Shown: positions 3,361 through 62,339 of the stretch, one piece after another | Layout of the letters: each line of letters begins with the position of its first letter | Numbering within the stretch: position 1 is the stretch's first letter | DNA from: Bugulina stolonifera | Lineage: Eukaryota; Bryozoa; Gymnolaemata; Cheilostomatida; Bugulidae | DNA: 64,000 nt | Assembly: GCA_935421135.1 (NCBI GenBank) | Contig: OW285194.1 | Coordinates: 10,315,376-10,379,375 of the forward strand | Direction: 5' to 3' | Notes under the pieces: model-generated | Database searches by the model: none | What the model was told of the DNA's origin: nothing | What the model saw: the letters and a program-made list of their open reading frames with translations, nothing else | Program-made: the position numbers and the translations under genes

Positions 3361-5782
3361 ATGGGTGAGTTAGCAGAAATTAAAGTTTTCTCTTTTGGTA
3401 TAACCTATCATATTAAGTTGTGTTAATAATAACGCTATCTTGTCAGAGCAAGCATCCTAAATGTAGTTGTGCATTTGATCATGTTAATAATGAAATATGT
3501 TTTATAATAATTGCAATGCACATTTGTAATATCATATTTTATACAAATTCTCATTAATTTACAGATAACAAAGTGTTGGTACTTCTTGGACTAGTTGCCG
3601 TGATTGGTGAGTAACATACTATAATTACTATAATTGCTATATAGTTTTATTCATGCAGATTCAGAGAGGGTTGACCTTCATGTGATTTGAGAAATAGATG
3701 AAACAAATTGAGAATAGCAACGTATTCTATTAATTATTTTTGTTTTGTTGAGCACATTGAACGTCCCATGCAGTTGATTTGTTGTTTTTACAGTTAAAAT
3801 ACTTGATCACTAACAAGTACTAGTTGAAATTGCTTTAGAACTAGGCCTACTGAACTACCAGCATGAGCAATTAAAACTGTATTAAATAAAATGTATTATT
3901 AATAAATTTCAGGTGCAGTAAGTGCCAGTTACCAGCGAAGCTATAGCCATGGTTCTCACAGTAGAACATACAGTAAGTTTAAAACTATTTTAATTTCCCT
4001 CCACTTATTGCATTTGCTGAGAAGATAAGCTAAGAATACAAACTGTATTTGAAATATGCAGCATACATACATGTAGATCTAGTGGCAATTTAGTTATCCT
4101 ATTAGGTTCAATTATGGTCACAGGCAGAGATAATAATATGAATCTAGAACTGGCAAAGGTAGTTTGAGTTATAACTTTTACATACAACTTAGATTTGTTA
4201 GAAATTTATTAACTAATTGGCAACATTTGGCATGTTCAACAATAGATAGTATACTAACATTTCAACCAGATTTGCAACAATATTACATGCATGTTTAACA
4301 ATACACAATCTCTATGTAGGTAAGAAAGAATGGTCACAATGGGGTGACTGGTCTTACTGTACCAAGACTTGTGGAGGAGGACTGAAGACCAGAAGCAGAA
4401 CCTGTGTGAGCCAAACAGTCCACTACTACAGTAATGCCAAACGCTGCTATGGTGCCTCAACCCAGTCTATGCAGTGCAACACTCAATGCTGTAAAGGTAA
4501 GGTGTGGGAGTTGAACTGATGAGAGATAATGAGGGTCTCATTGCTGGTTATGTTCTTAACATGCAGAAGTTAGAATAAATATTTAATGAAGAAGGGAATG
4601 TTGCTTACTGGTTAATTCAATGTGTGAATATGCGCCAAGCACGTAGTTTCTCCAACAATAGTGCTGTTTCAGAACCTTAGGAATTCTGCCTCTGAGATTC
4701 TGAGCTAAGCCACACTATGCTAAGCACAAATCCACTTCATTATCTCTTTAGTTTTTACATTGCGTGAATTAAAGGGACCTACATTGTAGTTTTCAATTTT
4801 TTTGCTACATGTGCATTGTGCTTTCCTGTTGAACGATAAATGCAACAATGCTTGACCACTACTTTTCTATTTCACTTATTTAGTGAACGGAGAATGGGGA
4901 CAATGGTCGCAGTGGGCAGCTTCCCATGGTGGTCACTATCAAGAGAAAAGAAGCAGAGTCTGTCTGTACCAAGTATGTGGAGGAAACAATTGTTATGGTG
5001 ACAGCATGGAAACCAGAGCCACTTACCACACCACCACTCAATACTATCCACCAACTACCAAGCATTATCAACCAACCACCAGATATCACCAAACCACCAA
5101 AGGATACCAGACCACTCGAGGTTACCAGACCACCAGAGGGTACCAGCCAACCACCCAATACCACGAAACCACCACCCAATACTACCCACCAACCACCAAG
5201 CATTACCAACCAACCACTAGATACCACCAAACCACCAAAGGATACCAGACCACCCGAGGTTACCAGACCACCAGAGGGTACCAACCAACCACTCAGTACC
5301 ATGAAACCACTACCCAATACTACCCACCAACCACCAAGCATTACCAACCAACCACCAGATATCACCAGACCACCAAAGGATACCAGACCACCAGAGGGTA
5401 CCAACCAACCACTCAGTACCATGAAACCACTACCCAATATTACCCACCAACCACCAAGCATTACCAACCAACCACTAGATATCACCAAACCACCAAAGGA
5501 TACCCGACCACTCGAGGTTACCAGACCACCAGAGGGTACCAACCAACCACTCAGTACCATGAAACCACTACCCAATATTACCCACCAACCACCAAGCATT
5601 ACCAACCAACCACCAGATATCACCAGACCACCAAGGGATACCAGACTACCAGAGGTTACCAGACTACCAGAGGTTACCAGACTACCAGAGGGTACCAGCC
5701 AACCACCCAATACCACGAAACCACCACCCAGTACTACCCACCAACCACCAAGCACTATCAGCCAAACAACCAATACTACTAA
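3361..5782 (+). CDS. Gene A: secreted TSR protein with long Tyr/Thr repeat tail
   Basis: Five exons: 3361-3364, 3565-3606, 3913-3972, 4320-4496, 4884-5782. They give 393 aa and all introns are phase 1. Residues 1-20 form a signal peptide (MDNKVLVLLGLVAVIGAVSA), 21-36 a short Ser/Tyr linker. Residues 37-94 are a thrombospondin type 1 repeat with WSQWGDW (C-mannosylation type WxxW), CTKTCG (O-fucosylation type CxxTCG) and seven cysteines ending in CC. Residues 95-135 are a second, degenerate TSR that keeps WGQWSQW and RSRVC but lacks the first cysteine pair. Residues 148-393 are a Tyr/Thr/Gln/Pro tail of five 40-52-residue repeats with Tyr about every six residues. The exon joins keep the frame and match gene B, which fixes the tail frame. 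A matrix or adhesive role is inference. Only one of the three open frames through the tail fits the splicing. I see no AATAAA close downstream. Confidence 0.85.
5042..5731 (+). repeat. Coding minisatellite, 138-bp unit, in gene A tail
   Basis: There are five tandem units of 46, 46, 40, 46 and 52 codons, each beginning YYPPTTKHYQ and ending HETTTQ. Within a unit the elementary period is six residues (YQTTRG). The unit lengths differ by whole six-codon steps, so expansion and contraction by slippage or unequal crossover has kept the frame. Units are nearly identical at DNA level, pointing to recent homogenisation. Confidence 0.9.
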
Positions 5783-5894
5783 GTTTTGTAGTTTCCTGTG
5801 CATTTCTTGAGCAAAGATGCAAATCACTCTGGAGTGGTACTAGTTGTTAATAATTTTTTATTTCTTTATTTATGGGCTTCGGAAACTGATTTCC

Positions 5895-6050
5895 TAATTT
5901 CATTTCTCTTGTTGATTTTAATAATTGCGTCCTCTTGTTCCTAGCTGTAGCAACATCTAATGCTTAGTTGTCTATTTGATTTGTAGAATATACTAATCGG
6001 TACACTTTCATCACTTTCCTTATACCTTTGTTACACTCTCATCGTCATAG
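5895..6050. repeat. Segment shared with 27660-27815
   Basis: About 150 bp downstream of gene A is closely repeated at 27660-27815, upstream of the lectin pseudogene. In the second copy it runs straight on into sequence matching 12370-12500, upstream of the intact lectin gene. It marks one edge of an old duplication or rearrangement. Confidence 0.75.
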
Positions 6051-6424
6051 GCAGTCTTGCCAACTCTACGACCTAAGTCGTATACATACGACTTTTCTCC
6101 CCCTACGTCCTACGACCACGACCTTTTACTAAATACACCTTTTCTATGACCTTGGAGTTATCTTCCCTCAAGGTCTATGATTTAGGATGGAATCATAGAA
6201 AGTCGTTGATAGAATATAAAAAGGTCAATGTCAGAGGTGTTTACACTCAATGAGAGATCCGTGGTCAGTGTTTCTAAGCTACTTTCTATTAGTAGAGGCT
6301 AGTGAGAGATCAATGTACTAAAAGTTGGGAAATCCAAACATATTGTAAGATTTGAAGCTATGTTTTTACAGCTTCCAGTCTATTTTCATTGTTTGAAAAT
6401 CTCTCAAGTAAATCCATTGATTAG

Positions 6425-6724
6425 AAAAATGAAAATGAGTCAAAAAAGGTATCATCAGAAATTGCTTTGCAAGATTGGTTTAAAGATCCTAAGTTTTCTC
6501 AGTCTGAAAAATATTCAGATTTCTTCTTCTTGGTAAAATGCCAGCTCTGCAGTACTAAAACTGTAAAGCCAGTTTTGGTAGATGTGAAAGGCAGGGGGAA
6601 AGCATGCTTGGTAAAACACGCCAACACAGAGAAACATCTGAAATTGATGGAAGAGGGAGTGAATGCTGACAAAGTAGTTTTTTCACAATCGACATTGGGT
6701 GATCACCAATCTCAATATAGAAAG
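6425..6724 (+). CDS. Single exon with transposase-type zinc finger
   Basis: An open exon lies between a possible acceptor (TTGATTAG) and a donor (AAG|gtatat). It encodes about 100 residues with a CQLC knuckle (CxxC), then about 26 residues later HANTEKH (HxxxxxH): an N-terminal TTF/BED-like zinc finger of the kind found in hAT-type transposases and host genes derived from them. The preceding residues (EIALQDWFKDPKF) also fit such proteins. No catalytic domain follows in the window. It is probably a remnant of an autonomous element, less likely the first exon of a domesticated gene. A TATA-like ATAAAAAG lies near 6215. Confidence 0.4.
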
Positions 6725-7199: not shown

Positions 7200-7305
7200 A
7201 GTGTTAAAATGTATGTACATGTATGTACATACATATACATACATGTACATACATGTACATACATGTACATACATGTACATACATGTATGTACATGTATGT
7301 ACATC
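7200..7305. repeat. ACATGTACAT simple repeat
   Basis: About 100 bp of alternating TACATGTA/ACATACATG units, largely self-complementary. Shorter runs of the same motif are scattered through the window. Confidence 0.9.
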
Positions 7306-10039: not shown

Positions 10040-11711
10040 ATGGGTAAGTTAGTCACATGGAGTATTATAGCATTATACAGTAACCTCAAGGTTTACAGGT
10101 TACTAAAATTTGCTTTGTCTTGAGATATCAATTTTTAGCAAAATACTTTTCAATGTTTTAATTCATTTTGTTGCGTATGTACATCTTAATGTGTGCGTAA
10201 ATGTAAAATGTACTGCACTGTTATTGGCAATTTGTGTGTTGTTACAGATAGCAAAGTTCTGCTACTTATTGGGCTTGCTGCCGTGATTGGTAAGTAATTC
10301 CATGATTTAAATTTTGATTGACTGGAAACTGTATTTATTCTGGTTGTTTTCTTAACGTAGACAGTAAGGTTGACCAAAGTTGAATTTGGGAATACCCTAA
10401 GCACTATAATTATTATGGTGTGTTTGCAGGTGCTGCAAGTGCCAGCTACCAGCGGCAGCATAGACCAGCTCCCACTGGTGCAACTCAGCGTAAGTTATTC
10501 TTCGTGAAAAAGCTTTTTCATCAACCAATTTACATGTTCATGTAGGTGAGCTCCACCATGGAAATATATATTTTTTGTAAAACACATGTACTTCCAACTT
10601 CACTACCTTCTAGAGATTCATAAAATGTAATATTAGAGTAACCTGGAAAATAGGATATATACGCTAGTATTTGTATATCACTGTATTGATGAACCTGCAC
10701 ACTGTGAAGTTGATGATGTAACAGCAATATTAAAATTATTATAACTAGATGATGTTTTTGTTTCATATAACTGTGACACACCTGTTTAGATTATAAAGAA
10801 TGGTCACATTGGGGTCAGTGGTCTTACTGTACTAACACATGTGGAGGCGGAGTAAAGACCAGAAGCAGAACCTGTGTGAAAAAGACAGCCAGCCACTACA
10901 GCGGTGCTGGGCGCTGCTATGGGGCCTCAACTCAGTCTATGCAGTGCCAAGGTAAGGCACAAAGGTTGAATTTAAGGGAAAAGGATCCTGCATTTTTTGC
11001 TACATAGCAAAATGCTTCAACTGATAGCAAATGATAAACAAGTTTAGCTTTTTTGCAGTACATTTAAATAAATATCAGTAGTGGCTTTGTGAAATTATAT
11101 GAGTATACGCTTTCACCAAATAATATGAAGACATTATAAATCTTGATTTAGCGAAAGGCAAATGGGGACAGTGGTCACAGTGGGCAGCTTCTCATGGTGG
11201 TCACTATCAAGAGAAGAGAAGCAGAGTCTGTCTGTACCAAGCATGTGGAGGAAATAATTGTTATGGAGACAGCATGGAGACCAGAACTACTCACCAGGCC
11301 ACCACTCAATATCAACCGACCAACAGACACTACCAGACCACCACCCGACGCTATGAAGTCACCAGAAGGTACCGGCCAACCACTCAATACCATGAAACCA
11401 CCACCCAGTACTATCAACCAACGACCAAGCATTACCAGCCAACTACCAGAGGGTACCAAAACACCAGAGGTGACCAGACCACCAGAGGGTACCAGAACAC
11501 TAGAGGTTACCAGACTACCAGAGGGTACCAGAACACCAGAGGTCACCAGCCCACCAGAGGTTATCGGCCAAGGAGATATCAGCAGACCACCAGAGATTAC
11601 CAGACCACCAGAGGTTACCAGACCACCAGAGGTTACCAGACCACCAGAAGATACCAGACCACCAGAAGATACCAGACCACCAGAGGTTACCAACAACCCT
11701 ACCGATATTAG
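10040..11711 (+). CDS. Gene B: secreted TSR protein with Tyr/Thr/Arg tail
   Basis: Five exons: 10040-10043, 10248-10289, 10430-10489, 10790-10951, 11152-11711. They give 275 aa with phase 1 introns. Residues 1-20 are a signal peptide (MDSKVLLLIGLAAVIGAASA). The TSR exon (about 37-89) has WSHWGQW and CTNTCGGG, but is 15 bases shorter than in gene A and lacks the final CNTQCC-type cysteines. The second, degenerate TSR (90-130) is nearly identical to that of A (WGQWSQWAASHGGHYQEKRS). The tail (131-275) is built of shorter, less regular units such as GYQTTR and GYQNTR, and ends QQPYRY. Compared with A the tail is shorter and more Arg-rich, so charge and length differ between paralogues. An AATAAA at 11727-11732 sits only 16 bp past the stop. 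Confidence 0.85.
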
Positions 11712-11726
11712 GAATTCTGCTACCAG

Positions 11727-12640: not shown

Positions 12641-14755
12641 ATGCTATTTATCACTGCTATTTTTGGTAAGTCCACAAGATTTGCATCAGATTTCAATAAA
12701 ATTGCTGAATATACATCTAGCATCTACCGAATTTAACCAGTTGTTAGCAAAAACATAGTTATGCCTAAATATAATATGCAAATACAGTCATGTGGTACAT
12801 GCAGGTAATTCTGCAGGTTTCATTACACGTGTTATATGTTTTTGTCATGTAACCTGTATTGTAAGCCTTCGTACAATATAATAATACTGTTCCAGATAAT
12901 TATTTCAATGGTAAATTTTAGCTCTTGTCATAATCCACGGAGTTGACTGCAGCTACCAGAAAGAGGGTGTGTTCAGAAGGTACAGGATTCTATTGGCTAA
13001 GTATGAAAGGACCACACCCACTACCAAAATTAGCATGTCTCATCGACGGTGTGTCCAGGAGTGTCTCAAAACAGATGGATGCCGAGGGGCAGCATATGGC
13101 GAGCAAGCTGGAAGCTGTGCGCTGGAAACTTGTGTCAACCCAAACCTTCTGTCTCTGCAGTCAAAGAGTAAGACTGGACTCTATGTCACTGGAGAGCCAA
13201 TGACGAAAAGGGAACTTGCAAGAGGTGAGGTGTAGTCAAGTAATCATTACATGGATGTACTTTTTAAATAAGCAACTTGTACAACATTTGGAAAAAACAA
13301 TGTCCAGTATGGTGAATTTCCCACTAAGTTCTATTGCTAGTGTACTGTCGATTAAAAACTAACAATCATGACAAGTTTTACATACTGTACAAGTCCAAAA
13401 TTTGAATTTTGATAGCAATGCCATAAATTGTTTGCCGTAAGTTGTTATACATAAAGAGACTAAAATTTTGAAAACGTTGCACTTGTGCATGTATGTACAT
13501 GTACGTGTACATGCTATGGTTCGCTTGAAACAAAATTAGTACACGCGGTTTAACGTATGTTGATTTTCAGCAAAGCAATACTAATTTTACACTTGTGTGT
13601 CAATAGATTTAGTCAGAGTCAAATTATCAAAGTGACATGCAAGTGCACATGAGTGTAGTGTTGAGGTCTATTAAATTCTATAACTACTGTACTAGCTATT
13701 AATCTAGGATAGTCCTTGCTCTTGTATCGTATAGGCAAACCAGCTGAACTATCCACTACTTACTCATCACCCTTGGATGCTTCCAAAGCTAATGATGGCT
13801 TGCCCATTGTGGAAGGTAATCTCTATCACTCACTAGTTAGCGGCCTTCACCAAAACAGACCTTGGTGGAGAGTAAACCTGAAGGAAGTTTACTGTGTCTG
13901 GGATGTGAATATCTTGAATAGAGCAAAAAGTATGTGTATAATATCAGTCACCTTGACCTACAGACATCTACCACGGGGTGGCACAGTTGGTGGCGTACAT
14001 GCACACAAACCGAGAGAGTGTGAGTTTAAACCCCCAGCTGTGTTATTTCTGGCAAAGGCCTCCAGCAAGCCTCTAACCCTAGCTGTGCCTGTTTGGATCA
14101 GGGCATATAAATAACACAGGAGGTCCCATGTAGTGTCTATATCAAAAACATGCACGCTAAAGGTCCGCATCTGCTTTTATTTGCAAAGAGAAGCCAGATT
14201 CTGGTGGGCTATGTGACTACATTGGGGGGGGGGGGGGGGCTGATGTAGTGCTCACTGACTATGCACTCTTGTTGTGGAAGGTGAACTCTTCCACTCAGAG
14301 CCCAGGTCCTGTCGCTCATACAAGTTTCATACTTCTGAGGTCCATTAAGTAGGATGGCCAAGTGGCTCGACAGCAACCGAATAAAAATAATAACACAATA
14401 TTATGTATAATATACATAATATTGTGTTATTATTTATTATGTCTCTAGAGTTGAATACTTCCTACATGTAACGCATAAATATTATTGCCTTTTTATATTG
14501 ATATTTGATAAAATTGCTGAAGGTGAATTCTGGGAGAGAACAAAGAATGCCGAGGTGACCGTTGCCATAGAAACAGCAGACCTAGTGTTTAGAGGATCTA
14601 ACCCAGAGGTTCTGTGTAACTACTATGATGGTATTCTGAACGAATATTACACTCTGATTACTTGTGATCAACCAATCAGAGGACGGTTTGTCCAGATTCT
14701 GCTAAATACAACAACGGTGCTGAGTATATACGAGGTTGAAGCGCATGGAATCTAG
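12641..14755 (+). CDS. Secreted PAN/apple plus fucolectin-type lectin
   Basis: Four exons: 12641-12665, 12922-13224, 13735-13929, 14523-14755. They give 251 aa with phase 1 introns. Residues 1-18 form a signal peptide (MLFITAIFALVIIHGVDC). Residues about 20-108 look like a PAN/apple module, with cysteines spaced as RRCVQECLKTDGCRGAAY and a later CALETC. From about residue 110 the protein matches the fucolectin/tachylectin-4/pentraxin (FTP) F5/8-like fold: GKPAELSTTYSS, DASKANDG, HSL, PWWRVNLKEVYCVWDVNILNR and the C-terminal IRGRFVQILL..LSIYEVEAHG. Such proteins bind fucose or other glycans outside the cell, so a role in recognition or in binding matrix sugars is likely but inferred. Intron 3 carries a SINE and a palindrome. 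The acceptor of exon 4 (GAAG|GTGAAT) keeps the frame and the lectin alignment but is the least certain join. Confidence 0.78.
13970..14384 (+). mobile_element. tRNA-derived SINE in lectin intron 3
   Basis: TGGCACAGTTGG (13979-13990) matches the Pol III A box, and AGTTTAAACCCC (from 14023) is a diverged B box at tRNA-like spacing. The tail includes a 16-base G run (14224-14239). I could not define target duplications, so the ends are approximate. Confidence 0.5.
14385..14435. repeat. Perfect 25-bp inverted repeat, 1-base loop
   Basis: The arms 14385-14409 and 14411-14435 are exact reverse complements around a single A at 14410, all AT-rich. It lies in intron 3 of the lectin gene directly after the SINE. 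It could extrude as a cruciform or fold as a hairpin in the transcript. Confidence 0.92.
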
Positions 14756-15067: not shown

Positions 15068-15182
15068 CTGTTGTGTATATGCAATGTACAATGCGTTTAA
15101 GTACTACAATTATTATACAGTCACCAAATAAATTGTCTATAAAATTGGCAATAGGATGACGCATTTTATAGCCTTCTTATAT

Positions 15183-15710
15183 AGTTCAATAGTTCAATAG
15201 TTCAATGGTTCAATAGTTCAATAGTTCAATAGTTCAATAGTTCAATAGTTCAATAGTTCAATAGTTCAATAGTTCAATAGTTCAATAGTTCAATAGTTCA
15301 ATAGTTCAATAGTTCAATAGTTCAATAGTTCAATAGTTCAATAGTTCAATAGTTCAATAGTTCAATAGTTCAATAGTTCAATAGTTCAATAGTTCAATAG
15401 TTCAATAGTTCAATAGTTCAATAGTTCAATAGTTCAATAGTTCAATAGTTCAATAGTTCAATAGTTCAATAGTTCAATAGTTCAATAGTTCAATAGTTCA
15501 ATAGTTCAATAGTTCAATAGTTCAATAGTTCAATAGTTCAATAGTTCAATAGTTCAATAGTTCAATAGTTCAATAGTTCAATAGTTCAATAGTTCAATAG
15601 TTCAATAGTTCAATAGTTCAATAGTTCAATAGTTCAATAGTTCAATAGTTCAATAGTTCAATAGTTCAATAGTTCAATAGTTCAATAGTTCAATAGTTCA
15701 ATGGTTCAAT
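15183..15710. repeat. 66-copy octamer satellite (AGTTCAAT)n
   Basis: 528 bp of nearly perfect AGTTCAAT octamers, 66 units. The only variants I see are GGTTCAAT units, one near each end (about 15207 and 15703). Such homogeneity indicates recent expansion by slippage. Reading frames are interrupted, so it is not coding. Confidence 0.96.
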
Positions 15711-22398: not shown

Positions 22399-23094
22399 AT
22401 GGGTAAGTTGAAGCAGCTTAAAGTATTGACTATGCCTAGACATAAATATTTATTGGCATGCCAGCATACATGTACATATATAATCTTTGAGTAATTCATG
22501 TTTTGGGTTGATCAATGCTTCATACAATATCACAGAATATCACATTTTACATTTTATAGAATGAATACATCAACAAAAATTCTCCTGAAGCATTATTTTT
22601 AGGCTGTAGAGGCTATACCCAAGTCAACTTTATGTTATATGCTAAAATAAAACTATAACATTGATATGAATACAATTATTCTACTTAAATCCTTTTAAGG
22701 TCAAATAATTTGTTTTTCAGATTCCAAGATCTTGATGCTGCTGTTGGTGAGTTTCATGCTTTTGCATAATAAATAGGATCATTCTTTATAAATTATACGA
22801 TGTTTGCTTAGCCACTATGTTGAACTTTATTGTTTTATAGAAGTGTGATTATTACAGCTATTACATTGTAGATTGCGAGATGTTTATATTGAATGATTTT
22901 TACCAAACAGTCTTATAGTGCATATAGAAAAGCATTAGATTTCAAACATTGAATATTTATTTAAGTTTGACATGCATTTACGTGTAAGTTTAAACGTCAT
23001 TTGAACTTACAGCCTTGGTCAGCGCAAGTTACTCTCCAAGTAGCAACTACAAAAATGGCTACCGACAGCCCTCTTCTCATCAGAAATCATCCAA

Positions 23095-23325
23095 CTACCC
23101 TCGACAGTCCCGTGGCAGATCATATCCTCGACAGTCCCGTGGCGGAACATATCCACAACAGTCCTCTGGCGGATCATATCCACAACAATCCCATGGTGGA
23201 TCATATCCACAACAATCCTCCGGAGGATAATATCCTCAACAATCCCAAAGCAGATCATATCCACAACAATCCCCTGGGGGATCATATCCTCAACAATCCC
23301 ATGGCGGATCATATCCTCGACAAAA
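23095..23325 (+). repeat. 24-bp coding repeat in exon 3 of gene C
   Basis: About nine tandem units of 24 bp encode SYPQQSxGG-type octapeptides in the ancestral frame. Gene D has only a remnant of this region, so exon 3 is 189 bp (63 codons) longer in C. A point change in one unit creates the TAA at 23228. Confidence 0.85.
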
Positions 23326-24382
23326 TCCTCAAAGATACTGTAAGTTCAGTTACACATGTATAAGCTAGCAGTAGTTTAGTGTCTAATATAGCAATTACTA
23401 GTAATTTATACTCTGTTTATAAACAATGGATAATTCTCTTACTGCTTTATGTTTATAGTTATGACTATGACATGATGTCATGCGCGTATATGCGTGCTAA
23501 AATCTGGCACCAACAAACAGTCTGTGACAAATTTTAAGTTATTTTTCTCACAACTTTCAAAGTTTCAAATGCATGACACAGTATGATATAATTATGTATG
23601 AAGCAGTAGAGTATACAATGTCATGTAAACGTATGTGTGTTACCCTATAATATCGTTGCAGATGTAAGAGAATGGGGCAACTGGGGTCACTGGTCTCGTT
23701 GTGACAGAACTTGTGGAGGTGGAGTACAGAGGAGATACAGGAGATGTGACAGCTCACCCCGCTACGGATATGGACATTCTTCCAACGCAAACTGCCACGG
23801 TCTCAGAGACGCTCAAAGAAGGTGTAACACTCACTGCTGCCCGGGCAAAACATTATTCTCTTTTTTTTGAATTTTACAAATATTCTGAAGGTTATTACCA
23901 CTTGGTAAGTTAAATCATAAAGCAGCGCAAATTTTAAACATTTTTTGTGTGCATGTCAACTATAATTTAGATTTTATATTTACATATAGGTGCCCTTTGC
24001 ACTACTAAGCTAAAAAGTTGATTATTTTACACATAATTTGCATGTATAACGTCTAAAATGTATCTTATTATTTCATATACATGTACATGTATATGACACA
24101 CAAATACAATGACATGATGACACATTGTGTCTTCGTCTTTGTAGTTGATGGCCGATGGGGACAATGGAATAACTGGTCCATCAAACGGTACAGTCAATCA
24201 CATTCTTCACACGCCCGACAAACCAGAAGCCGATACTGTGAGAACCAGAGATGTGGCGGTAGAAGATGCCATGGCAGCGCTGATCAGACCAGATATGTCC
24301 CCAGTAAGTAAACTATATTGCTGCCAGCAGTTGGATCATAATTTTGTGATAAGCGTTTGTAGTAAATACTCATATATGCTAA

Positions 24383-25194
24383 AGGGTATGCTACATGGAC
24401 GCACAACTTCTGCGAATATCGCCAGTTTAAACAACGGAAAACGTTGTTAGGTGCTACACAGAAGTTGCGTTTTTATTGTAAATAAAAGAAGTTGTCTACT
24501 CATTAATTTAACTGAAGGCAAGAGTAAATAAATCTAAGGAATTATTGTAACCTGTGAACCTACAAAAAGATAATTGGGGGTTGTGATACATTTACATTCA
24601 ATCTCTTTAGGATTAGCCCCTCCATATTGTAGCTGAAATTAAAACCTCCACTATTTTAGCAATATATCAGAACACGCAGGTTGAAATATTTCTGCTTGGT
24701 GAAAACTAAGTTCAACTAAATGTTTCCTATACGTAACGAGCACCTGAGAGGCTTGACTTGAATTAATTTATGGTTTAGGATGCACACGATAGCTTGACTG
24801 TTGATTTAATTTATTTACCTTGTGCTTATAATAAGGATTGAACTTCTCCCACAACGCTGGTCTTTTGTTGGATTAATTTAAACAACATAGCTATACAGCT
24901 TTCGTCCATTTTGCGGTCAGTAGAGTATAGCACAAATTTAAATTAAATTATCAAATTAATTTTAATTTATTCAATGGTTTTATTTTATTATCCTAAAAGC
25001 TAAACTCAACTGCTAGCACTTTGTCAAAGCATCTTAAGTTAGCTGTAGCCAATCAACACTCGATTCGCATTTTGTAACGTTAAAAGTTTATAGCATGCAA
25101 TAAACATGCGATTTAGCAAAAGTTCAACATCAGTAATCGCAAAACGCAAAAGTTATGCGATTCGCATAAAGTTTGCGTTCGTGTAGCATACCCT
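24383..25194. mobile_element. Harbinger-like MITE in intron 5 of gene C
   Basis: Termini AGGGTATGCTACATGGACGCA and the complement of TGCGTTCGTGTAGCATACCCT are imperfect inverted repeats. The flanks are TAA (24380-24382) and TAA (25195-25197), a 3-bp TWA target duplication typical of PIF/Harbinger. Gene D at the same intron position has an empty site. There is no transposase ORF in the 812 bp, so it is non-autonomous. Confidence 0.85.
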
Positions 25195-25514
25195 TAATTA
25201 TGTTAACATTGCCAACTTGATGCTTGTAGAACCACCATCTTACTACAGCCCACCCAGACACTACAGCCCAGCCAGCCACCGCCAACCAGCCTACCCCAGA
25301 CAGTCTACCAGCAACCCTTGTTACTAAGCTAGTCACGGCCACTATTGCCAGATAGCCTGATGCTGCTGATGAAGTTTCTAAATGGTTGCTTATTGGATGT
25401 TTGCTTGTTGTTAATGTTGCTGCCAGTTTTAAAAGTGGCTTTATGTTACCTCTTTAAGTTTTAAATTTTTGAGAAAGTTTGTTATAATATCTATTTGATT
25501 AAAATTTGCTTTAA

Positions 25515-34414: not shown

Positions 34415-35270
34415 AACAAACAAACAATTTAAACAGTCACAGTACACTGTGAAAATGAATAATACTCCTCTGGAATTTAAAAATGAAACAAAATTTCTTG
34501 GTATCACCCTCGATGCTAACATTACTTTCAAACCACATTTGGCTCTACTTTATCGAAAACTGAAGCTTATTTTATTAATGATGAAAGCTGTACGATCATT
34601 CTTTAACCAAAAAACAATGGTGGAACTTTATTATGCCTTTTTTTATCCCCATCTTTTATATGGAATCGATTCTGGGGGCATGCGAATAAGACTACACTTA
34701 AACGCATCGCAGTCCTCCAGAAGGCAACTGTTAGAGTAATTTTAAACATTAAACCGAGAGAACCTGTTACCTCTCATTTTAAAACCCTACAGTAAAAGTC
34801 ATGCCAATTAAAATGCTTTTTGAATTTACCCCTTTAAAACTACTACTTAAAACCTTTCCTCCAGAACTTTTATTTTCACTGATGACAAAAAGCCATCACA
34901 ACACACGGCAACAAAGTCTTAAAACAAAGAAAGCCAACAACAAACGAGGTGAAAGGTCCTTGTTGAACACAGGAATTGTCCTGTACAACAAATACCTAAT
35001 GGGGGTGGAGACTGGCACCGCTGCCTGTCGCGTGGATGGTCTGGCTGCCCTCATGTGGGGGGTCGCTTAGGGCCGGTGGAGACTGCATGTCCCTGCTGTC
35101 CTTGCGTGGGGTGGTTCTGGGGCGGTGAAGAGCTTTTTAGTTGGGCAGCCTTTTCTCTAGCTTCAGGCTATCTGGTTTGTCCCTTTGCTTTTTTTATATA
35201 ATATGTCTTTTTAATATATTTTATATCTTTCAAAAATAGCAATAAACGCACTAAACTAAAAAAAAAAATG
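34415..35270 (+). mobile_element. 5'-truncated non-LTR retrotransposon (LINE)
   Basis: Absent at the matching place in copy 1 (near 21230). It encodes the C-terminal part of a LINE reverse transcriptase: FLGITLDANITFKPHL, KAVRSFF and FYPHLLYGI in one frame (34449 on), then after a frameshift WGHANKTTLKRIAVLQKA, and a further frame with HNTRQQSLKTKK. A stop (TAA near 34793) and frameshifts show that it is dead. It ends in an A run before 35270. The family (jockey/CR1/RTE-like) cannot be set from this fragment. Confidence 0.75.
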
Positions 35271-36510: not shown

Positions 36511-38660
36511 ATGGGTAAGTTGAAGCAGTTTCAAGTATTGACTATGCCCAGACATAAATATTTATTGGCATGCCAGCATAAATGTATATTTTTTAATCAA
36601 TTCATGTTTTGGTTTGATCAATGCTTTATACAATTACAGAATATCACACTTCACGTTTTGTAGAATGAATATATCAACAAAAATTTTCCTGAAGCTGCAT
36701 CTACGTGTATTTTCAAACATACAACATAATTATATATAATGTATAATGTACATGTGTAGAGGCTACACAATTCAACTTTATGCTATAATTATGCTAAAAT
36801 AAATGTAGCAGCATTGATATGAATACAATTATTCTTCTCAATACTTTTAAGGTCAAATAATTTATTTTTCAGATTCCAAGATTTTGATGCTGCTGATCGT
36901 TGTTGCTGCCGTTGGTGAGTTTCATGCTTTTGCATAATAAATAGGATGACTTTTATAAATTTTACAACGTTTGCATAGCCACTATGTTGAACTTTCTTGT
37001 TTTCTGTAAAACGTGTGATTATTACAGCTATTGGATTACAAGATGTTTATATTGAATTATTTTTACAAAACAGTCTTATAATGCGTATAAAAAAGCTTTA
37101 GATTTCAAACACTGAGTTCTTTTATTGAATATTCATTCAAGTTTAACATGTAAGTTTAACTACCATTTAAACTTACAGCCTTGGTAAGTGCAACTTACTC
37201 TCCAAGTGGCAACTACAACAACGGCTACCGACAACCTTCTTCCTACCACCAATCGCCCAGCTACCGACAACCACCCCATTACAGATCATCTCCTCGACAA
37301 AGTCCTCAAAGATACTGTAAGTTCAGTTACACATGTATAAGCTAACAGTAGTTTACTGTCTAATATAACAACTACTAGTAGTTTATACTCTGTTTATAAA
37401 CAATGGATAATTCTCTTACTGCTTTATGTTTATAGTTATGTACATGTACTCACTACAGTATGTACATGTACATTGTACTTCACCGTAGTATGTAGATGTA
37501 CATTGTACTTCACTGTAGTAAGTACATGTACATGTGATATGTGTGTATGTGTGCTAAATTACAGTATCAACAATTATATAGTCTGTGACATCTTTAAAGT
37601 TATTTTTCTTACAGCTTTTAAGTCTCAAATGTATGACACAGTATGATATAGTTATGTATGAAGCAGTAGAGTATACAATGTCATGTAAACGTATGTGTAT
37701 TACCCTATAATATTGTTGCAGACGTAAGAGAATGGGGTAACTGGGGTCACTGGTCTCGTTGTGACAGAACTTGTGGAGGTGGAGTACAGAGGAGGTACAG
37801 GAGATGTGACAGCTCACCCCGTTATGGATATGGACATTCTTCAAACTCAAACTGCCACGGCCCCAGAGACGCTCAAAGAAGGTGCAACACTCACTGCTGC
37901 CCAGGTAAAATGTTATTCTCTTTTTGGAATTTTTCAAATATTCTGAAGGTTATTACCACTTGGTAAGTTAAATCATAAAGCAGAGAAAATTGTTCTGAGA
38001 TCTACAATGTACAGAGCGTAAACATGTCAACTACAATTTAAATTTCATGTTTGGGTACACTTTGCACTACTAAGCTAGAAAGTCAACTCTTTTACACATA
38101 GTTTGCATGCACAACTTCTAAACTGCATATTATTTGTTATACATGTACATGTACAATGTAGATGGCAGGATAATGCACAAAAATACGATGGCATGATGTG
38201 TTTTTGTCCTTGTAGTTGATGGCCGATGGGGACAATGGAATAACTGGTCCGACAACCGTTACAGTCAATCCCATTCTTCACACGCCCGACAAACCAGAAG
38301 CCGATACTGTGAGAACCAGAGATGTGGCGGTAGAAGATGCCATGGCAGCGCTGATCAGACCAGATATGTCCCCAGTAAGTAAACTATAAATGGCTCACCA
38401 CAATATTATCGTCAGCAGTTAGATTATGATTTCACAATAAGCGTTTGCAGTAAATACTTGCATATGCGGATTATGCTAACGTTGCCAACTTCATGCTTGC
38501 AGGACCACGATCTCACTACAGACAGCCACACTCTAGACCATCTACTCACTACAGCACACCCAGACACTACACCCCACCCAGACACTACACCCCACCCAGA
38601 CATTACCAACAACCGGCCTATCCCAGACCATCTACCCACTACAACAACCCTCATTACTAA
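36511..38660 (+). CDS. Gene D: secreted TSR protein with Tyr/His/Pro tail
   Basis: Six exons: 36511-36514, 36873-36914, 37179-37316, 37722-37904, 38216-38374, 38503-38660. They give 227 aa with all introns in phase 1. The signal peptide is about residues 1-21 (MDSKILMLLIVVAAVGALVSA). The linker (22-61) is rich in Tyr, Ser, Pro and Gln. Residues 62-122 are a TSR with WGNWGHW, CDRTCGGG and cysteines ending HCCP. Residues 123-175 are a degenerate TSR (WGQWNNWSDN, RSRYC, CGGRRCHG) that lacks the first cysteine pair. The tail (176-227) contains three PRHYTPP-like units and ends NNPHY. Unlike A and B, the second TSR and the tail are on separate exons. It is the intact partner of pseudogene C and the reference for C's lesions. 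Extracellular structural role is inferred. Confidence 0.87.
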
Positions 38661-48250: not shown

Positions 48251-50419
48251 ATGGGTAAGTCTGTACTTCTTTATATTATCTAAATATTTACCAAAAACGA
48301 GCTTGAAAATAATATAGCATTGTTTTAGTTGAAAGTCCTCAAAGAGTAAAAAAACATTCTGTTTACTTGGTTTAAGCAAATTAATTTAATTATTCTAAAA
48401 CAATCTCAGTTAAGGCTAAGCCTTTCATTTGGAAAAGTACAATGCAGTTCAGATCAGTTTGGCTTCTGATATTTGGTTGTTTGCTGCTTAGCGTACTAGT
48501 CATTTGCTAATGACAGTATGCAGAATGAGCCATGATTGTTTTTATCACATCATATAGCACAAGGTTCAGATATGGAGCATTCAAAGCAGCTTCTTTTTGA
48601 ATTTTTGTTCATTTAATGGCTCACAGGGTAATTCTATATCTTTACTCATACATTGTAGCGTTCATTATCCAATCCTTGAACTAAGTCTTCATATAGAAAC
48701 TCAAACACATATTTTTTATTACAGACAACAAGACCCTCATCCTTCTTGGCCTAGTAGTCATCCTTGGTAAGTATTACAACTATTCAATTTACAGCCACAT
48801 TCAATAGAAGTCTGGAATTGTTGCTAGTACTGATAATTATGTGTGCCGTAAACTAATTACATAGAACATACATGGAGAGATAACTTCTGTATTCTCAACG
48901 TATTGCATGCAGTTAGTTGATGTGTTCTGTGTATGTGCATGATGCCATATGAGTTTTACTCAAGTTAAGTTCAAATCTTCCAGTACTCAGAATATTTTGC
49001 AAGTCAAAAATGTGTAAGCACCTACATCTACCCACCCCAATTTAGTATTTGATAATTAATACATGGTATGACTGGTGCTCATTTGACTAGTTTAGATGGC
49101 TGCTAACCATTTTGTGCAATGTACTGATTTCAGGCTTGGTAAATGCCAGATACGGCTCTAGTTACAACAACAACAAACACCATCTAAGCACCAGCTACAA
49201 AACACACCAACCAAGCTACAACACTCACCACCAGACATCTTACTATGGTAAGCATCGTAAGACACACTACCAGAGTTATCTCACGCCGTAATATAAATAA
49301 CTTACATCTAATGTGTAACTTAACCATTCTTTATATATCACCCAATGTACAGTTACACATAGTCACACTCAAACATTGGATAACATCTTGAACATCTGCC
49401 CAAAATGTAACACAGTTTTTACAGTCAGTATTGCTATTTGTGACCAAACTTGTATGTAACCGCAAATTTGAAGGTGAATGTGTGTTCATATGCATTGCTG
49501 CATCTTACAGGACAATGGTCACAATGGGGTTACTGGACATCATGCACCAAAACTTGTGGTAGCTACGGGGAACAGAGACGGTACAGAACCTGCAGAAGTG
49601 GACATAAAGTGCTCCCAAATAGTAGATGCCATGGTAGCAATCTTGGTCGAAGACGATGCCACCAGAGAGCATGCCACAGTAAGTTGTTACTAAATAACGT
49701 TGTAAATTCTATTAAAAATATAACTGCTGGAACCTATTCTCAAATTAAACAATAAGTGAGAGCAATGATTGGTGAAGCACAGACAAACGTTGGGATGAAA
49801 TTCTTTGCTCAGTTCTGTTTTTCGGTGTATATTATTGGATTATTAAATCCAGGGGAAATTGGGCTATTATTTTACTGTGGAGTTCAAATAATGTCTTTTG
49901 AAAATTAATGACTTGAAGCCCATTGAAAAATATACTGCTCCTGAGACTTATTACTGAGCCAACTGCACTGAAAAAAATATTTTATGCAATGTCTTTTAAT
50001 CTGTAGGTTATAGAAGCCAGTCTCGCTACAACCCTCACAGCAACTACCGAAGCAACAGCAGGTACGCACCAACTGTTAGACCACACTACAACCGCGGAAG
50101 CAGATATCACACCACTAGAAGGTCACACTACAACCAGCAGTCTCGTTATGTCCCAACTACCTATGCTCCAAAAACCCACTACAACTCTCACAACAGCTAC
50201 CGCACCACCAGAAAACCACACTACAACCAGCAGTCTCATTATGTCCCAACCACCTATGCTCCAAAAACCCACTACAACTCTCACAACAGCTACCGCACCA
50301 CCAGAAAACCACACTACAACCAGCAGACTCGTTATGTCCCAACCACCTATGCTCCAAAAACCCATTACAACTCACACAATGCTGGAAAGTATCAGCACAA
50401 ATCATCCAACCGTTACTAA
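48251..50419 (+). CDS. Gene E: secreted single-TSR protein with Tyr/His/Asn tail
   Basis: Five exons: 48251-48254, 48725-48766, 49134-49247, 49511-49678, 50007-50419. They give 246 aa with phase 1 introns. The signal peptide is residues 1-20 (MDNKTLILLGLVVILGLVNA). The linker (21-53) is rich in Tyr, Asn, His and Ser. The single TSR (54-109) has WSQWGYW, CTKTCGSYG and the six cysteines of a canonical repeat (SC, TC, RTC, RC, RC, AC). The tail (110-246) has two full and further partial copies of a 31-residue unit (SYRTTRKPHYNQQ, YVPTTYAPKTHYNSHN) and ends SSNRY. Residue use (Tyr, His, Asn, Arg) differs from the Thr/Pro-rich tails of A and B. AATAAA lies at 50673-50678. The longer tail is the main difference from F and G. 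Confidence 0.87.
50110..50390 (+). repeat. 93-bp coding repeat in gene E tail
   Basis: About 2.7 near-identical units of 93 bp (31 codons). F and G have only the equivalent of one unit, so the array grew in E or shrank in F/G. The other frames also stay open, giving spurious ORFs on both strands. Confidence 0.88.
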
Positions 50420-55084: not shown

Positions 55085-57067
55085 ATGGGTAAGTTAGTAC
55101 TTCTTTACATCATCTACATATTTTCCAAAAACAACTTTCATAATAATATTATAATATTATTTTAGTTGAAAGTTATCAAAAAATTAAAGAAAAGTATTTA
55201 TTCAGTTTATCTGGTTCAACCAAATTAATTTAATTATCCCAGATCAATCCCAGTTGAAGCTAATAATATTATTTGAATAGGGAAATTATCTACAGTAAGT
55301 TTGACTTCAATAATGTGACTGTTAGTGTCTTGCATAATAGTTATTTGATTATAACAGTCAAAGGACAGTGTAGTCATTAGTCACTGTCACTAGTTCAGAG
55401 GTTAAGTACTCTAAGTGTAAATTCACCAGAAGTTGTTTTTTCCCTACTTTTAGTTTATTTAATGGCTGGCAGCATCATTTCGTAGTATTATACATACCAC
55501 TGCATTATACGAGCAATTTAGACCTTGTAGATCCACATAATACCGATTACATAAATTCTTTTTAATTACAGACAACAAGACCCTCATCCTTCTCGGCCTA
55601 GTAGTCGTCCTCGGTGAGTATTGCAGTTATTCAATTTACAGCCACATTGAATAGAAGTCTGTAAGGGTTACTAGTACTAATAATTATGTGTGGGGTAAAC
55701 TAAGTATATAGAATATACAAGGGGAGATAACCTCTGTATTCAAACATATATTTTGGTCATGGTGTCAAATCAGTTTTACTGAAGGAAATAAAATTAGCCA
55801 ACAAGAGTGACAATGAGATATCTACCGAATGTATAGAATTAAAATTTACACAAGTGGTAGTGGGAAGGTAAGCCTAGACTTTGTAAGCACCTATATTTAA
55901 TCACTTCAAGTTAGTATTAAATATTTTATAATGCTCGTGCCTATTATTTGACAATTTTCCAAGAGGCTGATAACTAATTTGATAATTTAATGATTTCAGG
56001 CTTTGTAAATGCCGGATACGGATCGAATTACAACAGCCACAACCAATACCAGCCAAGCACCAGATACAATAGACACCAGCCAAGCTACAACTCCCACCAC
56101 CGAACATCCTACTATGGTAAGCATCGTTATACATGTATGACATTGTAATATACAATCATGTAGATTACATCTAACGAATAACTTACATGTAGAACAGTTT
56201 ACTTGCATTAGTATTATGGAGTTCAACAAAGTCTCAGTCAATCATCAAACTCTTTCTAGTGTACGCGTACATGTAGTTACGTCCAGGTACTGGATAGTAT
56301 CTTGAAGATTTGTACAAAGTGTAACAACACTTAACTTAGTTCTACATATTATACATGCATATACTTTCATATCTATTGGTGTATCTTACAGGACAATGGT
56401 CACAGTGGGGTTACTGGACATCATGCACAAGAACTTGTGGTAGCCATGGAGAACAGAGGCGGTACAGAACCTGCAGAAGTGGACATCAAGTGCTCTCAAA
56501 TAACCGATGCCATGGTAGCAATGTCGGCCGAAGGAAATGCAACCAGAGACCATGCCGCAGTAAGCTGTTATGAGTCACACTGTATTTCCTAGTGGAAATA
56601 TAACAACTGACTGGCGGCTATGCTAAAATAAAAAGATAAATAAAAGCTATGATGTGTAAAGCACAGACAGGCCTTAAAATGAAATTTTTAGCTCAGTTCA
56701 TTCGTCCAGTGTATATTGTTAGTAGGTCAAATCCAGAAGCAAGTTGGGCTATTATTTTACTCTGAAATTAAAATAATAATTTTTGAAGAGTAAGTACTAC
56801 TTATGTAACAGACTGCAAAATATTTTATGCAATATCTCTTAATTTGTAGGTTATAGAAGCCCATCTCGCTACAACCCTCACAGCAACTACCGAAGCAACA
56901 GAAGATATGCACCAACTGTTAGACCACACTACAACCGTCGTAGCCACTACCGAGCCACTAGACGCCCTTACTACAACAGATACCAGACCACCAGAAGGCC
57001 ATACTATGCCCCAAGGACCCGTTACAACTCTGGAAAATATCAGTACAACCGATTCAACCGTTACTAA
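55085..57067 (+). CDS. Gene F: secreted single-TSR protein with Tyr/Arg tail
   Basis: Five exons: 55085-55088, 55572-55613, 56000-56116, 56392-56559, 56850-57067. They give 182 aa with phase 1 introns. The signal peptide is residues 1-20 (MDNKTLILLGLVVVLGFVNA). The linker (21-54) is Tyr/Asn/His-rich (NQYQPSTRYNRHQPSYNSHH). The TSR (55-110) has WSQWGYW, CTRTCGSHG and six cysteines. The tail (111-182) is strongly basic, with motifs such as RYAPTVRPHYNRR, RRPYYNRYQTT and KYQYNRFNRY, and no long repeats. It is the closest relative of gene G, differing by a handful of residues; the intron sequences also align. The short exon 1 (ATGG) and the donor/acceptor pattern are the same as in the other six family members. 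Confidence 0.88.
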
Positions 57068-57321: not shown

Positions 57322-57327
57322 AATAAA
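57322..57327 (+). promoter_or_regulatory. Polyadenylation signal of gene F
   Basis: AATAAA about 255 bp past the stop, same position as in E and G. Confidence 0.6.
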
Positions 57328-60199: not shown

Positions 60200-60402
60200 A
60201 GATCCACTTAATTAGCATTCAGATATAGAATGCTGTAATCACCATTAATTAGCTTTAAAAACTTCCTAGTCATAGTTGGTACAGTACTTACCGTTGTAAT
60301 GTCTGCAATGACAGGTGCAGTGGTTGAATATTTTGTATAAAAGCTGGATTTATTCATCAGTTAGTCAGTGTTCTCTTGAATCCCCTCAGCAGATCATCAA
60401 CC
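60200..60402 (+). promoter_or_regulatory. Promoter of gene G
   Basis: TATAAAAG at 60336-60343 within the shared block; almost identical to the promoter of F. Confidence 0.65.
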
Positions 60403-62339
60403 ATGGGTAAGTTAGTACTTCTTTATATTATCTAAATATTTACCAAAAAAAACTTTCATAATGATATTATAGTATTATTTTAGTTAAAAATCAAATAAAA
60501 GTATTTAGTTAATTTAAATATCCTGGAACAATCCCAGTTAAAGCTAGTAGGTTTATTTGGAAGCGAACAGTACCTAAGTTACGTCTTTAGTACCTTACTT
60601 GACTGTTTACTGTCTTGCATACTAGTTTTCAATTATAGCAGTAAACATAATGAGTCAATTGGTGGTTTTGTTCATCATATAGTACACAGTTCAGAGGTTA
60701 AGTGCTCTAAGTGAAATTGTAACAGAAGCTGCTCTTCCTTACTTTTAGCATATTTAATGGCTCACAGCATCATTTTGTAGTATTGCACATACCACTGCAT
60801 TATACAAGCAATTCGAAACTGGTAGATCCACATATAAAATCATTTAGAGTTTACATAATGTCTTTTTATTACAGACAACAAGACCCTCATCCTTCTTGGC
60901 CTAGTAGTCATCCTCGGTAAGTATTAGAGTTATTCAATTTACAACCACATTCAGTAGAAATCCGTAATGGTTACTAGTACGACAATTATGCGCGCAGCAA
61001 ATTAAGTACATAGAGTATACATGGGGAGAGAACCTCTGTATTCAAACATATTTTGGTCATGATGTCACATGAGTTTTACTGAAGGAAATAAGATTAACCA
61101 ACAAGAGCGACGATAAAATATTTACTAAATGTATAGATCTCAAATTTACAAAAATAATAGCGGGAAGCTAAAACTGAAATTTGTATGCACCCACTTTTAA
61201 CCACCTCAAGTTAGCAATAAATATTTTACATGATGTGTGACTATTTGACAAGTTTAAAAGGTTGCTAACTAATTTTTGTATTTTGATGATTTCAGGCTTT
61301 GTAAATGCCAGATACGGATCGAATTACAACAGCCACAACCGATACCAGCCAAGCACCAGATACAACAGACACCAGCCAAGCTACAACTCCCACCACCGAA
61401 CATCCTACTACGGTAAGCATTGTTATACATGTACATGTATGTCATTGTAATATACACGTAGACATCTAAAGCACAGCTTATAATGGTTTACTTGCATTAG
61501 TGTCATGGAGTTCAACAAAGTTTCAGTGAATCATCAAACTCCTTCTAATGCACACGTACATGTAGCTACGTCCAGGTACTGGATAATATCTTGAAGATTT
61601 GTACAAAATGCAACAACATTTAACTTAGTTCTACATATTATACATGTATATACTTTCATATCTATTGGCGTATCTTACAGGACAATGGTCACAGTGGGGT
61701 TACTGGACATCATGCACAAGAACTTGTGGTAGCCATGGAGAACAGAGGCGGTACAGAACCTGCAGAAGTGGACATCAAGTGCTCTCAAATAACCGATGCC
61801 ATGGTAGCAATGTTGACCGAAGAAAATGCAACCAGAGACCATGCCGAAGTGAGTTGTTATGAGTCACACTTTATTTCTTATTGGAAATATAGCAACTGGT
61901 AGCTATGATAAATAGATAAAATATATAAAAGCTATGACAAGTAAAGCTCAAACAGGCCTTAAAATAGAATTCTTAACTCAGTTCATTTGTTTAGTAGATC
62001 AAATCCAAGAGCAAGTTGGGCTATTATTTTACTTTGAAATTGAAATAATGATTTTTGAAGATCAATATCTGCTTTTGAAACACACTACAAAATATTTCAT
62101 GCAATGCCTTTTAATCTGTAGGTTATAGAAGCCCATCTCGCTACAACCCTCACAGCAACTACCGAAGCAACAGGAGATACGCACCAACTGTTAGACCACA
62201 CTACAACCGTCGTAGCCACTACCAAGCCACTAGACGCCCTTACTACAACAGATACCAGAACACCAGAAGGCCATACTACGCCCCAAGGACCCGTTACAAC
62301 TCTGGAAAATATCAGTACAACCGATACGGCCGTTACTAA
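60403..62339 (+). CDS. Gene G: secreted single-TSR protein with Tyr/Arg tail
   Basis: Five exons: 60403-60406, 60875-60916, 61296-61412, 61681-61848, 62122-62339. They give 182 aa with phase 1 introns. The layout equals gene F: signal peptide 1-20 (MDNKTLILLGLVVILGFVNA), linker 21-54, TSR 55-110 (WSQWGYW, CTRTCGSHG, six cysteines), basic Tyr-rich tail 111-182. Changes against F include Asn-Val-Asp-Arg for Asn-Val-Gly-Arg in the TSR and a C-terminus YNRYGRY instead of YNRFNRY. All exon lengths are identical to F, and no frame-breaking change is seen, so both copies are probably functional. AATAAA at 62597-62602. Confidence 0.88.

What the first reader, a model, noticed from the sequence alone, without database searches (positions are those of the whole stretch)
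3361..62339. Seven-gene cluster of secreted TSR proteins with Tyr-rich tails
Genes A-G share signal peptide, one or two thrombospondin type 1 repeats and a disordered, Tyr-rich basic tail, with the same exon plan. The TSR core is conserved while tails differ in sequence, length and repeat unit, as expected for a structural or adhesive protein family in which the tail sets the material property. TSR plus Tyr-rich tail is not a family I know by name. WxxW and CxxTCG motifs in the TSRs predict C-mannose and O-fucose. Tyr-rich tails could be oxidised or cross-linked (DOPA or dityrosine); that is inference.
Basis: partly seen in the sequence, partly recalled or inferred. Interest (0 to 1): 0.85.

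Follow-up and report, generated by a model that had tools for sequence, protein, structure and literature searches.

The report
Tyrosine-tailed TSR gene cluster in bryozoan
A colony-forming sea animal (the bryozoan Bugulina stolonifera) carries a row of related genes for small secreted proteins that join a known folded domain to tyrosine-rich tails, which makes them good but untested candidates for parts of its body covering or its underwater glue.

Summary
Seven tandem + strand genes (A-G, 3361-62339) encode a signal sequence, a linker, one or two thrombospondin type 1 repeats (TSRs) and a basic, Tyr-rich tail. Six are intact; C is a recent pseudogene. An eighth gene, H, lies just right of the window. 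The genome is Bugulina stolonifera, a cheilostome bryozoan, chromosome 8, identified by an exact scaffold-length match. Core and tail are both under purifying selection. Tyr tends to recur every 6-7 residues, and the seven intact models end in Tyr. The cluster is part of a larger family: at least 15 more chromosome-8 loci carry the same TSR doublet; one (7.005 Mb) has a Tyr-rich linker and tail. Best reading: secreted matrix or adhesive proteins whose TSR core anchors and whose Tyr/Arg tails associate and may be oxidised. Expression, tissue and cross-linking are untested. TSRs and Tyr-rich repeat proteins are each known; I did not find this combination in my searches. RNA-seq by zooid type exists for this species (PMC7534450), so the tissue question is directly testable.

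The parts
3361..5782 (+). Gene A, 5 coding exons (3361-3364, 3565-3606, 3913-3972, 4320-4496 = TSR1, 4884-5782 = TSR2 + tail), 393 aa
   Evidence: spliced model, GT-AG, phase 1 throughout; Pfam TSP_1 39.8 bits; TATA-like box at about -73, no AATAAA within 900 nt after the stop
5018..5779 (+). Gene A tail, 254 aa, 18.1% Tyr, 31.9% Thr, imperfect tandem repeats with periods of 18-21 nt and 120-258 nt
10040..11711 (+). Gene B, 5 coding exons (10040-10043, 10248-10289, 10430-10489, 10790-10951 = TSR1, 11152-11711 = TSR2 + tail), 275 aa; TSR1 ends 5 residues early relative to A (no NTQCC)
   Evidence: TATA-like box at about -76
11286..11708 (+). Gene B tail, 141 aa, 15.6% Tyr
   Evidence: tandem repeat of 18 nt at 11445-11692
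22399..25327 (+). Gene C, broken copy of D: exon 2 is 16 nt shorter than D's (frame lost), in-frame stop in exon 3, GC instead of GT after exon 4, no TATA-like box
36511..38660 (+). Gene D, 6 coding exons (36511-36514, 36873-36914, 37179-37316 linker, 37722-37904 TSR1, 38216-38374 TSR2, 38503-38660 tail), 227 aa; tail 52 aa, 15.4% Tyr
   Evidence: TATA-like box at about -70
48251..50419 (+). Gene E, 5 coding exons (48251-48254, 48725-48766, 49134-49247 linker, 49511-49678 TSR, 50007-50419 tail), 246 aa; tail 137 aa, 16.1% Tyr, 93-nt repeat
   Evidence: TATA-like box at about -67
55085..57067 (+). Gene F, 5 coding exons (55085-55088, 55572-55613, 56000-56116, 56392-56559 TSR, 56850-57067 tail), 182 aa; tail 20.8% Tyr
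   Evidence: TATA-like box at about -67
60403..62339 (+). Gene G, 5 coding exons (60403-60406, 60875-60916, 61296-61412, 61681-61848 TSR, 62122-62339 tail), 182 aa; tail 22.2% Tyr
   Evidence: TATA-like box at about -67. Gene H, a further F/G-like copy, lies outside the window at chr8:10384150-10386097 (L069)

Best explanation
A tandem array of small secreted extracellular-matrix proteins, either exoskeleton (cuticle) or attachment material, in the bryozoan Bugulina stolonifera. Signal peptide removal would leave a protein that begins with x-Tyr and ends in Tyr. A disulfide-stabilised TSR core (one TSR in E-H, a TSR plus a reduced second TSR in A-D) provides the binding or anchoring surface. 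The flanking linker and tail act as flexible arms with Tyr 'stickers' about every six residues among Arg, Lys, His, Thr and Pro; several such arms could associate (Tyr-Arg and Tyr-Tyr contacts) and be fixed by oxidation to DOPA or dityrosine. Tandem duplication and repeat slippage vary arm length and unit while Tyr spacing is kept, so copies would differ in material property rather than in target. Shown here: gene models, domain content, selection on core and tail, Tyr spacing, family spread. Inferred: secretion, matrix role, association, oxidation, tissue.
For: Signal-like exon, TSRs, phase-1 exons; TSP_1 hits. Ka/Ks A/B core 0.33, tail 0.25; E/F 0.30 and 0.30; F/G 0.17 and 0.44. Tyr pairs at distance 6 exceed 1000 shuffles of the same tail in A (22 against mean 7.9), B (10 against 3.2) and E (12 against 3.3), 0 of 1000 reaching the count; in F 16, H 42, D 49, G 58 of 1000 reach it. 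Last residue Tyr in 7 of 7 intact models A, B, D-H, and an even Cys count in 7 of 7 (10, 8, 10, 6, 6, 6, 6). TATA-like box 67-76 nt before ATG in 6 of 6 intact window genes, none in C. A Tyr-rich linker and tail also in L015 at 7.005 Mb. A comparable protein type in byssus: Dbfp2 of quagga mussel, with Pro/Tyr/Lys/Thr-rich repeats and conserved Tyr spacing (PMC6474901, passages). TSRs occur in the flatworm adhesive protein Mlig-ap2 (PMC6410801, passages).
Against: No transcript, peptide or tissue evidence. A, B and E tails are tandem repeats, so part of their Tyr periodicity is inherited from copying; in D, G and H it is marginal. B's linker has little Tyr. A has no AATAAA within 900 nt after its stop. 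The flatworm authors say that no adherence of TSP-1 domains to inorganic substrates is described (PMC8621496, passages). Only one tyrosinase exon match in the genome; heme peroxidase could not be searched (tool not answering). The zooid RNA-seq paper has no 'thrombospondin' in its main text. Several chromosome-8 relatives seem to have short tails with little Tyr, so the TSR doublet evidently works without a long Tyr tail.
Confidence: 0.5

Rival explanations
1. Matricellular or signalling TSR proteins (as spondin or isthmin): the TSR core is the active part and the tails are solubility or proteoglycan-binding ballast that drifts in sequence.
For: TSP-1 domains bind matrix proteins, receptors and growth factors (stated in passages of PMC8621496); relatives with apparently short tails exist.
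Against: Tails are under purifying selection comparable to the core in A/B and E/F; Tyr spacing and C-terminal Tyr are kept across tails with different units; linkers on the other side of the TSR are Tyr-rich as well, except B's.
Confidence: 0.2
2. Humoral defence proteins: secreted TSR proteins that bind microbes or host ligands (properdin-like use of TSRs), with cationic Arg/His/Tyr tails acting on membranes. Tandem copies and variable tails would reflect diversification against microbes.
For: Basic tails, pI 9.7-11.3; properdin chains are the second and third best of 34 solved-structure matches to the A1 profile; large, locally duplicated family on one chromosome.
Against: No excess of amino-acid change: over the seven pairs within A/B and E-H, Ka/Ks is 0.12-0.36 in the core and 0.25-0.54 in the tail, not the pattern of an arms race; regular Tyr spacing is not a known need of cationic peptides (recalled); the best match is thrombospondin-1, and likeness to properdin is likeness of a common domain.
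Confidence: 0.15
3. Chance or decaying repeats: low-complexity DNA that happens to be open, with no protein made.
For: C shows that copies do decay; tails are repeat-rich DNA.
Against: Seven intact models A, B, D-H with conserved splice sites and phases, Ka/Ks below 1 in all nine pairs tested, TATA-like boxes in 6 of 6 intact window genes, TSR domains over the Pfam cut-off in A and F.
Confidence: 0.03

Closest known systems
Pfam TSP_1 domain proteins (thrombospondins, properdin, spondin, ADAMTS)
   Same: TSR signature W..W..W, CxxTCG, R-R layers, six Cys
   Different: only TSP1-type families found in B, D, E, F, G at E<=0.1 and in A's first 157 aa at E<=1; TSR2 lacks the first two Cys; Tyr-rich arms beside the TSR
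Multi-TSR protein P0003 (EukProt transcript, species not given)
   Same: TSRs that end CN..CC followed by VDG.W, and a third TSR with RTCGG..CPG like TSR2 of A-D; E 4.4e-14 to gene D
   Different: four TSRs and no Tyr-rich tail
Freshwater mussel byssal proteins (Dbfp2, Dbfp5, Dbfp9)
   Same: repeated, Tyr 11-23% with conserved Tyr positions; Dbfp5 combines repeats with a six-Cys region (PMC6474901, passages)
   Different: the word thrombospondin does not occur in that paper's main text; partly Gly-rich; single hydroxylated Tyr seen by mass spectrometry there, nothing measured here
Flatworm adhesive protein Mlig-ap2
   Same: secreted adhesive protein with TSP-1 domains beside long repeats (PMC6410801, passages)
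   Different: very long multi-domain protein with vWD, TIL and LDL domains; the word tyrosine does not occur in that paper's main text

Membership tests
TSP_1 (PF00090) domain superfamily | profile match over the curated cut-off of 21.6 bits | tested here: met
   F 31.4 bits, A 39.8 bits; B, D, E, G match, their scores not printed
TSP_1 (PF00090) domain superfamily | second repeat of A-D also over cut-off | tested here: not met
   D's TSR2 alone 13.5 bits; in A one TSP_1 stretch only; chromosome-8 relative L018 16.2 bits. B's and C's TSR2 not scanned alone
Thrombospondin proper | EGF, TSP type 3 and C-terminal domains beside TSRs (recalled) | tested here: not met
   only TSP1-type families at E<=0.1 in 5 models and at E<=1 in A's first 157 aa
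Tyr-rich repeat adhesive or sclerotin proteins (mussel foot protein type) | secreted, repetitive, Tyr-rich, basic | tested here: met
   secretion by inspection of the signal sequence only; F-H tails have no clean tandem unit
Tyr-rich repeat adhesive or sclerotin proteins (mussel foot protein type) | Tyr converted to DOPA or dityrosine; protein found in the material | not testable with these tools
   no peptide data; one tyrosinase exon match in the genome, peroxidase search did not complete
Mlig-ap2 type adhesive | vWD, TIL and LDL domains with TSP-1 | tested here: not met
   none of these (A only to 157 aa)

The most novel reading that the evidence does not exclude
A bryozoan material-protein system: one chromosome carries more than twenty genes built on a small TSR unit, in which one branch has grown Tyr-hexad arms on both sides of the TSR (mature protein starting x-Tyr and ending in Tyr). 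It would supply the rhizoid or ancestrula cement or the tanned ectocyst of cheilostomes, with copy-to-copy change of arm length tuning stiffness or stickiness. It would be the first molecular candidate for bryozoan attachment or cuticle cross-linking that I know of.
Probability: 0.3. Interest if true: 0.7.

Novelty: new variant of a known kind. Interest (0 to 1): 0.5.

Why it matters
Bryozoans are an old phylum of sessile, often fouling animals. None of the papers listed by three searches (5 of 5 listed; 15 of 43; 12 of 34) names bryozoan attachment or cuticle proteins in its title. These genes give intact candidates in a species that can be cultured and for which RNA-seq of autozooid, avicularium and rhizoid exists (PMC7534450). 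If they are matrix or cement proteins, they show a design (folded anchor plus Tyr-sticker arms of evolvable length) different from the Tyr-rich byssal proteins of mussels and the giant multi-domain glue of flatworms.

Tried and rejected
Sponge origin: I first suspected a sponge because TACATGTA is about 20-fold enriched, searched sponge papers and read passages on spongin tyrosines (PMC11906918). Rejected: the complete mitochondrial COX1 reads by code 5 (AGR=Ser, ATA=Met), and the longest scaffold equals that of Bugulina stolonifera to the base.

Homologues in the protein collection: an alignment of 5 models found none at 1e-5; D alone found 2 at 0.01, both multi-TSR proteins; A's first 216 aa found none at 0.01. 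That collection cannot prove absence in animals.

One clade for all Tyr-tailed genes: a TSR tree of 19 rows (7 genes, 12 loci) had 1 well supported fork (A+B) of 16 inner branches and did not group A/B, D and E-H. 19 of the 31 loci tried were dropped because my pattern found nothing; 17 of the 19 are minus-strand loci that I had not turned. I later turned 23 minus-strand loci, these 17 among them, for domain reading but did not rebuild the tree. Searches had the same strand blind spot.

Structure: single-sequence AlphaFold2 of A's last exon, mean pLDDT 32.5, uninformative. No Rfam family and no tRNA in the window.
Full report
What is there. Seven genes stand head to tail on the + strand between 3361 and 62339. 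Each starts with a coding stub ATG-G, then a 42-nt exon for the signal-sequence core (26 nt in the broken C), then a linker exon, a TSR exon, and either TSR2 plus tail in one exon (A, B), separate TSR2 and tail exons (C, D), or a tail exon only (E, F, G). In the six intact genes every donor is GT, every acceptor AG, and every intron falls in phase 1. The inferred signal cleavage (by eye, A-x-A rule, recalled) leaves mature proteins starting SY, TY, RY or GY. The seven intact models, H included, end in Tyr. H (182 aa, F/G-like) lies at chr8:10384150-10386097, beyond the window.

Gene C is a pseudogene. Against D it has a 16-nt shorter exon 2, an in-frame stop in exon 3, GC in place of GT after exon 4, some 815 nt more in its last intron, and lacks the TATA-like box which the six intact window genes have 67-76 nt before ATG. 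Exons 4 and 5 of C and D are still 172 of 183 and 154 of 159 identical, and 12 of the 16 differences are at third codon positions, so the loss looks recent. AATAAA follows the stop within 900 nt in 5 of the 6 intact window genes (not in A).

Organism. The window lies at G000:C8:10315376-10379375. C1 is 36,811,656 bases long, exactly the longest scaffold given for Bugulina stolonifera tzBugStol2.1; the sizes of chromosomes 1, 3, 6, 7, 8 and 11, the ones I could compare, agree (PMC10213821, part 1 of 2 of the text and passages). The assembly held here has 234,951,659 bases in 27 contigs against 234,982,697 in 30 scaffolds in print. The complete mitochondrial COX1 on C27 reads by the invertebrate code, as expected for a bryozoan. 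It is a lightly calcified, erect, fouling species with autozooids, avicularia and anchoring rhizoids.

Is it more than chance. Tails of the six intact window genes have 15.4-22.2% Tyr against a mean of 5.7%, 95th percentile 11.7% and maximum 18.0% in 106 other open frames of at least 60 aa. Tyr is coded mostly by TAC (111 TAC to 34 TAT over the seven tails A, B, D-H), in tails of 48-53% GC inside 34-38% GC DNA. Ka/Ks, core and tail: A/B 0.33 and 0.25; E/F 0.30 and 0.30; E/G 0.33 and 0.31; E/H 0.36 and 0.27; F/G 0.17 and 0.44; F/H 0.17 and 0.54; G/H 0.12 and 0.26; D/E and A/D are near saturation. The F/G/H pairs rest on only 2 to 10 changes per class. Only aligned codons count, and repeat tails can be aligned in more than one way. 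So the tails are constrained protein, not open junk.

The rule in the tails. The repeat units differ (A and B: TTRGYQ-like; D: HYTPPR; E: a 31-residue unit; F-H: no clean unit), but Tyr follows Tyr at 6 residues more often than in shuffles: 0 of 1000 reach the observed count in A, B and E, 16 in F, 42 in H, 49 in D, 58 in G. In A, B and E this is partly a consequence of tandem copying. Linkers before the TSR are mostly Tyr-rich too: 3 of 19 residues (A), 8 of 45 (D), 6 of 35 (E), 7 of 36 (F, G, H); B's has 8.7%. The design is thus a folded core with Tyr-rich arms on both sides.

Cysteines. E-H have six Cys, all in the TSR. TSR1 of A, C and D ends in an extra Cys (CN..CC), giving seven; the reduced TSR2 has three; B lacks the last two of TSR1. 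Totals are 10, 8, 10, 6, 6, 6, 6 in A, B, D-H. A bond between TSR1's extra Cys and the CGG Cys of TSR2 would pair all in A and D; that is inference, helped by P0003, a multi-TSR protein of unnamed species whose third TSR carries both the CGG Cys and the CC ending. In some relatives TSR2 has four Cys (L017, L031), so the rule is not general.

The family is larger than the window. In a search with D's protein, 118 exon matches were found (150 of 221 candidates scored), of which I count 106 on chromosome 8 (7% of the genome); with F's, 73 of 82 (150 of 200 scored). Many of these are ordinary multi-TSR genes (8.33-8.43, 14.1 and 14.48 Mb). But 15 loci outside the window, all on chromosome 8, show both a TSR1 with the CC ending and the reduced TSR2: L015, L016, L017, L018, L019, L020, L021, L022, L023, L025, L026, L030, L031, L032, L060; three more (L035, L036, L038) show such a TSR1 only in the stretch fetched. 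I examined only the loci fetched with the best 30 matches of each search, so this is a lower bound. L015 (7.005 Mb) has a Tyr-rich linker (AINAAGYGYGNSYHTTKSYHQVHHSY) and, in the TSR2 exon, a tail HYTPRPHYNTKSYHHQPSYHRPSSYHK. Read to the next stop, with splicing not excluded, L025, L026 and L032 have short C-termini that end in Tyr (WGY, WGY, VY), while L017, L019 and others have short ends without it. Long Tyr arms therefore look like extensions of a short stub in a doublet family. A TSR tree could not decide whether A/B, D and E-H form one clade.

How it most likely works. Secreted; TSR core anchors or binds; Tyr/Arg/Lys arms associate with one another and may be oxidised. That the arms associate rests on the general behaviour of Tyr/Arg-spaced disordered chains (recalled), not on a test. 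[quoted passage not shown] zooid walls have a cuticular, often calcified ectocyst (PMC7317743, passages). These, and the rhizoids, are the tissues where such proteins would be looked for. Tyrosinase is represented by one exon match (a search by exon can miss most of a split gene).

What is known. Paper searches 'bryozoan, thrombospondin, Bugula' (5 papers, all listed), 'bryozoa, adhesive, DOPA, Bugula, tyrosine' with at least 4 terms (43 papers, 15 listed) and 'bryozoan, larva, adhesive, internal sac, rhizoid, cuticle' with at least 4 terms (34 papers, 12 listed) listed none that by title and abstract start describes such proteins; beyond the listings I read passages of two papers only. A search on adhesive proteins with TSRs (82 papers, 15 listed) led to the analogues below. 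The zooid RNA-seq paper on this species (PMC7534450, outline and passages) has no 'thrombospondin', 'tyrosin' or 'cuticle' in its main text; its supplements could not be read. Nearest analogues by design are mussel byssal proteins and the TSP-1-bearing flatworm glue protein; membership in those families is not claimed.

Noticed in passing
L072 (C26:34375-36051) and C12:7199-8926: A second COX1 on C26 encodes a protein with a long insertion that looks like a ciliate mitochondrial COX1 (recognised by eye); a similarly split match is on C12 (not read). Probably DNA of ciliates living on the colony that stayed in the assembly.
   Followed up: partly
C8:8.31-8.43 Mb, 14.09-14.13 Mb, 14.47-14.49 Mb; C5:8886368-8889001: Dense islands of further TSR exons on chromosome 8 and an open frame of 921 aa with TSRs on chromosome 5: the genome seems rich in TSR genes (150 matches scored of 433 candidates).
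   Followed up: no
window, whole: The palindrome TACATGTA occurs 74 times against 3.6 expected from dinucleotides, often in ACATGTAC runs.
   Followed up: no
15181-15712: Nearly perfect 8-nt satellite ATAGTTCA, 66.5 copies, 99% matches.
   Followed up: no
12915-14755: Open frames with weak PAN_1 (19.9 bits, cut-off 21.4) and galactose-binding-like (18.4 bits, cut-off 27.8) matches, probably exons of a secreted lectin-like gene between B and C.
   Followed up: partly
34416-35070: Open frames that look by eye like the end of a non-LTR retrotransposon reverse transcriptase, left of D; a Pfam scan of 34416-34739 gave no reverse transcriptase match at E<=1.
   Followed up: partly
L021 (chr8:10211337-10214516), locus positions about 1720-2120: A long tandem run open in two frames (YVLYYSV / SMYYITA repeats) on the strand opposite to the TSR gene there.
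   Followed up: no
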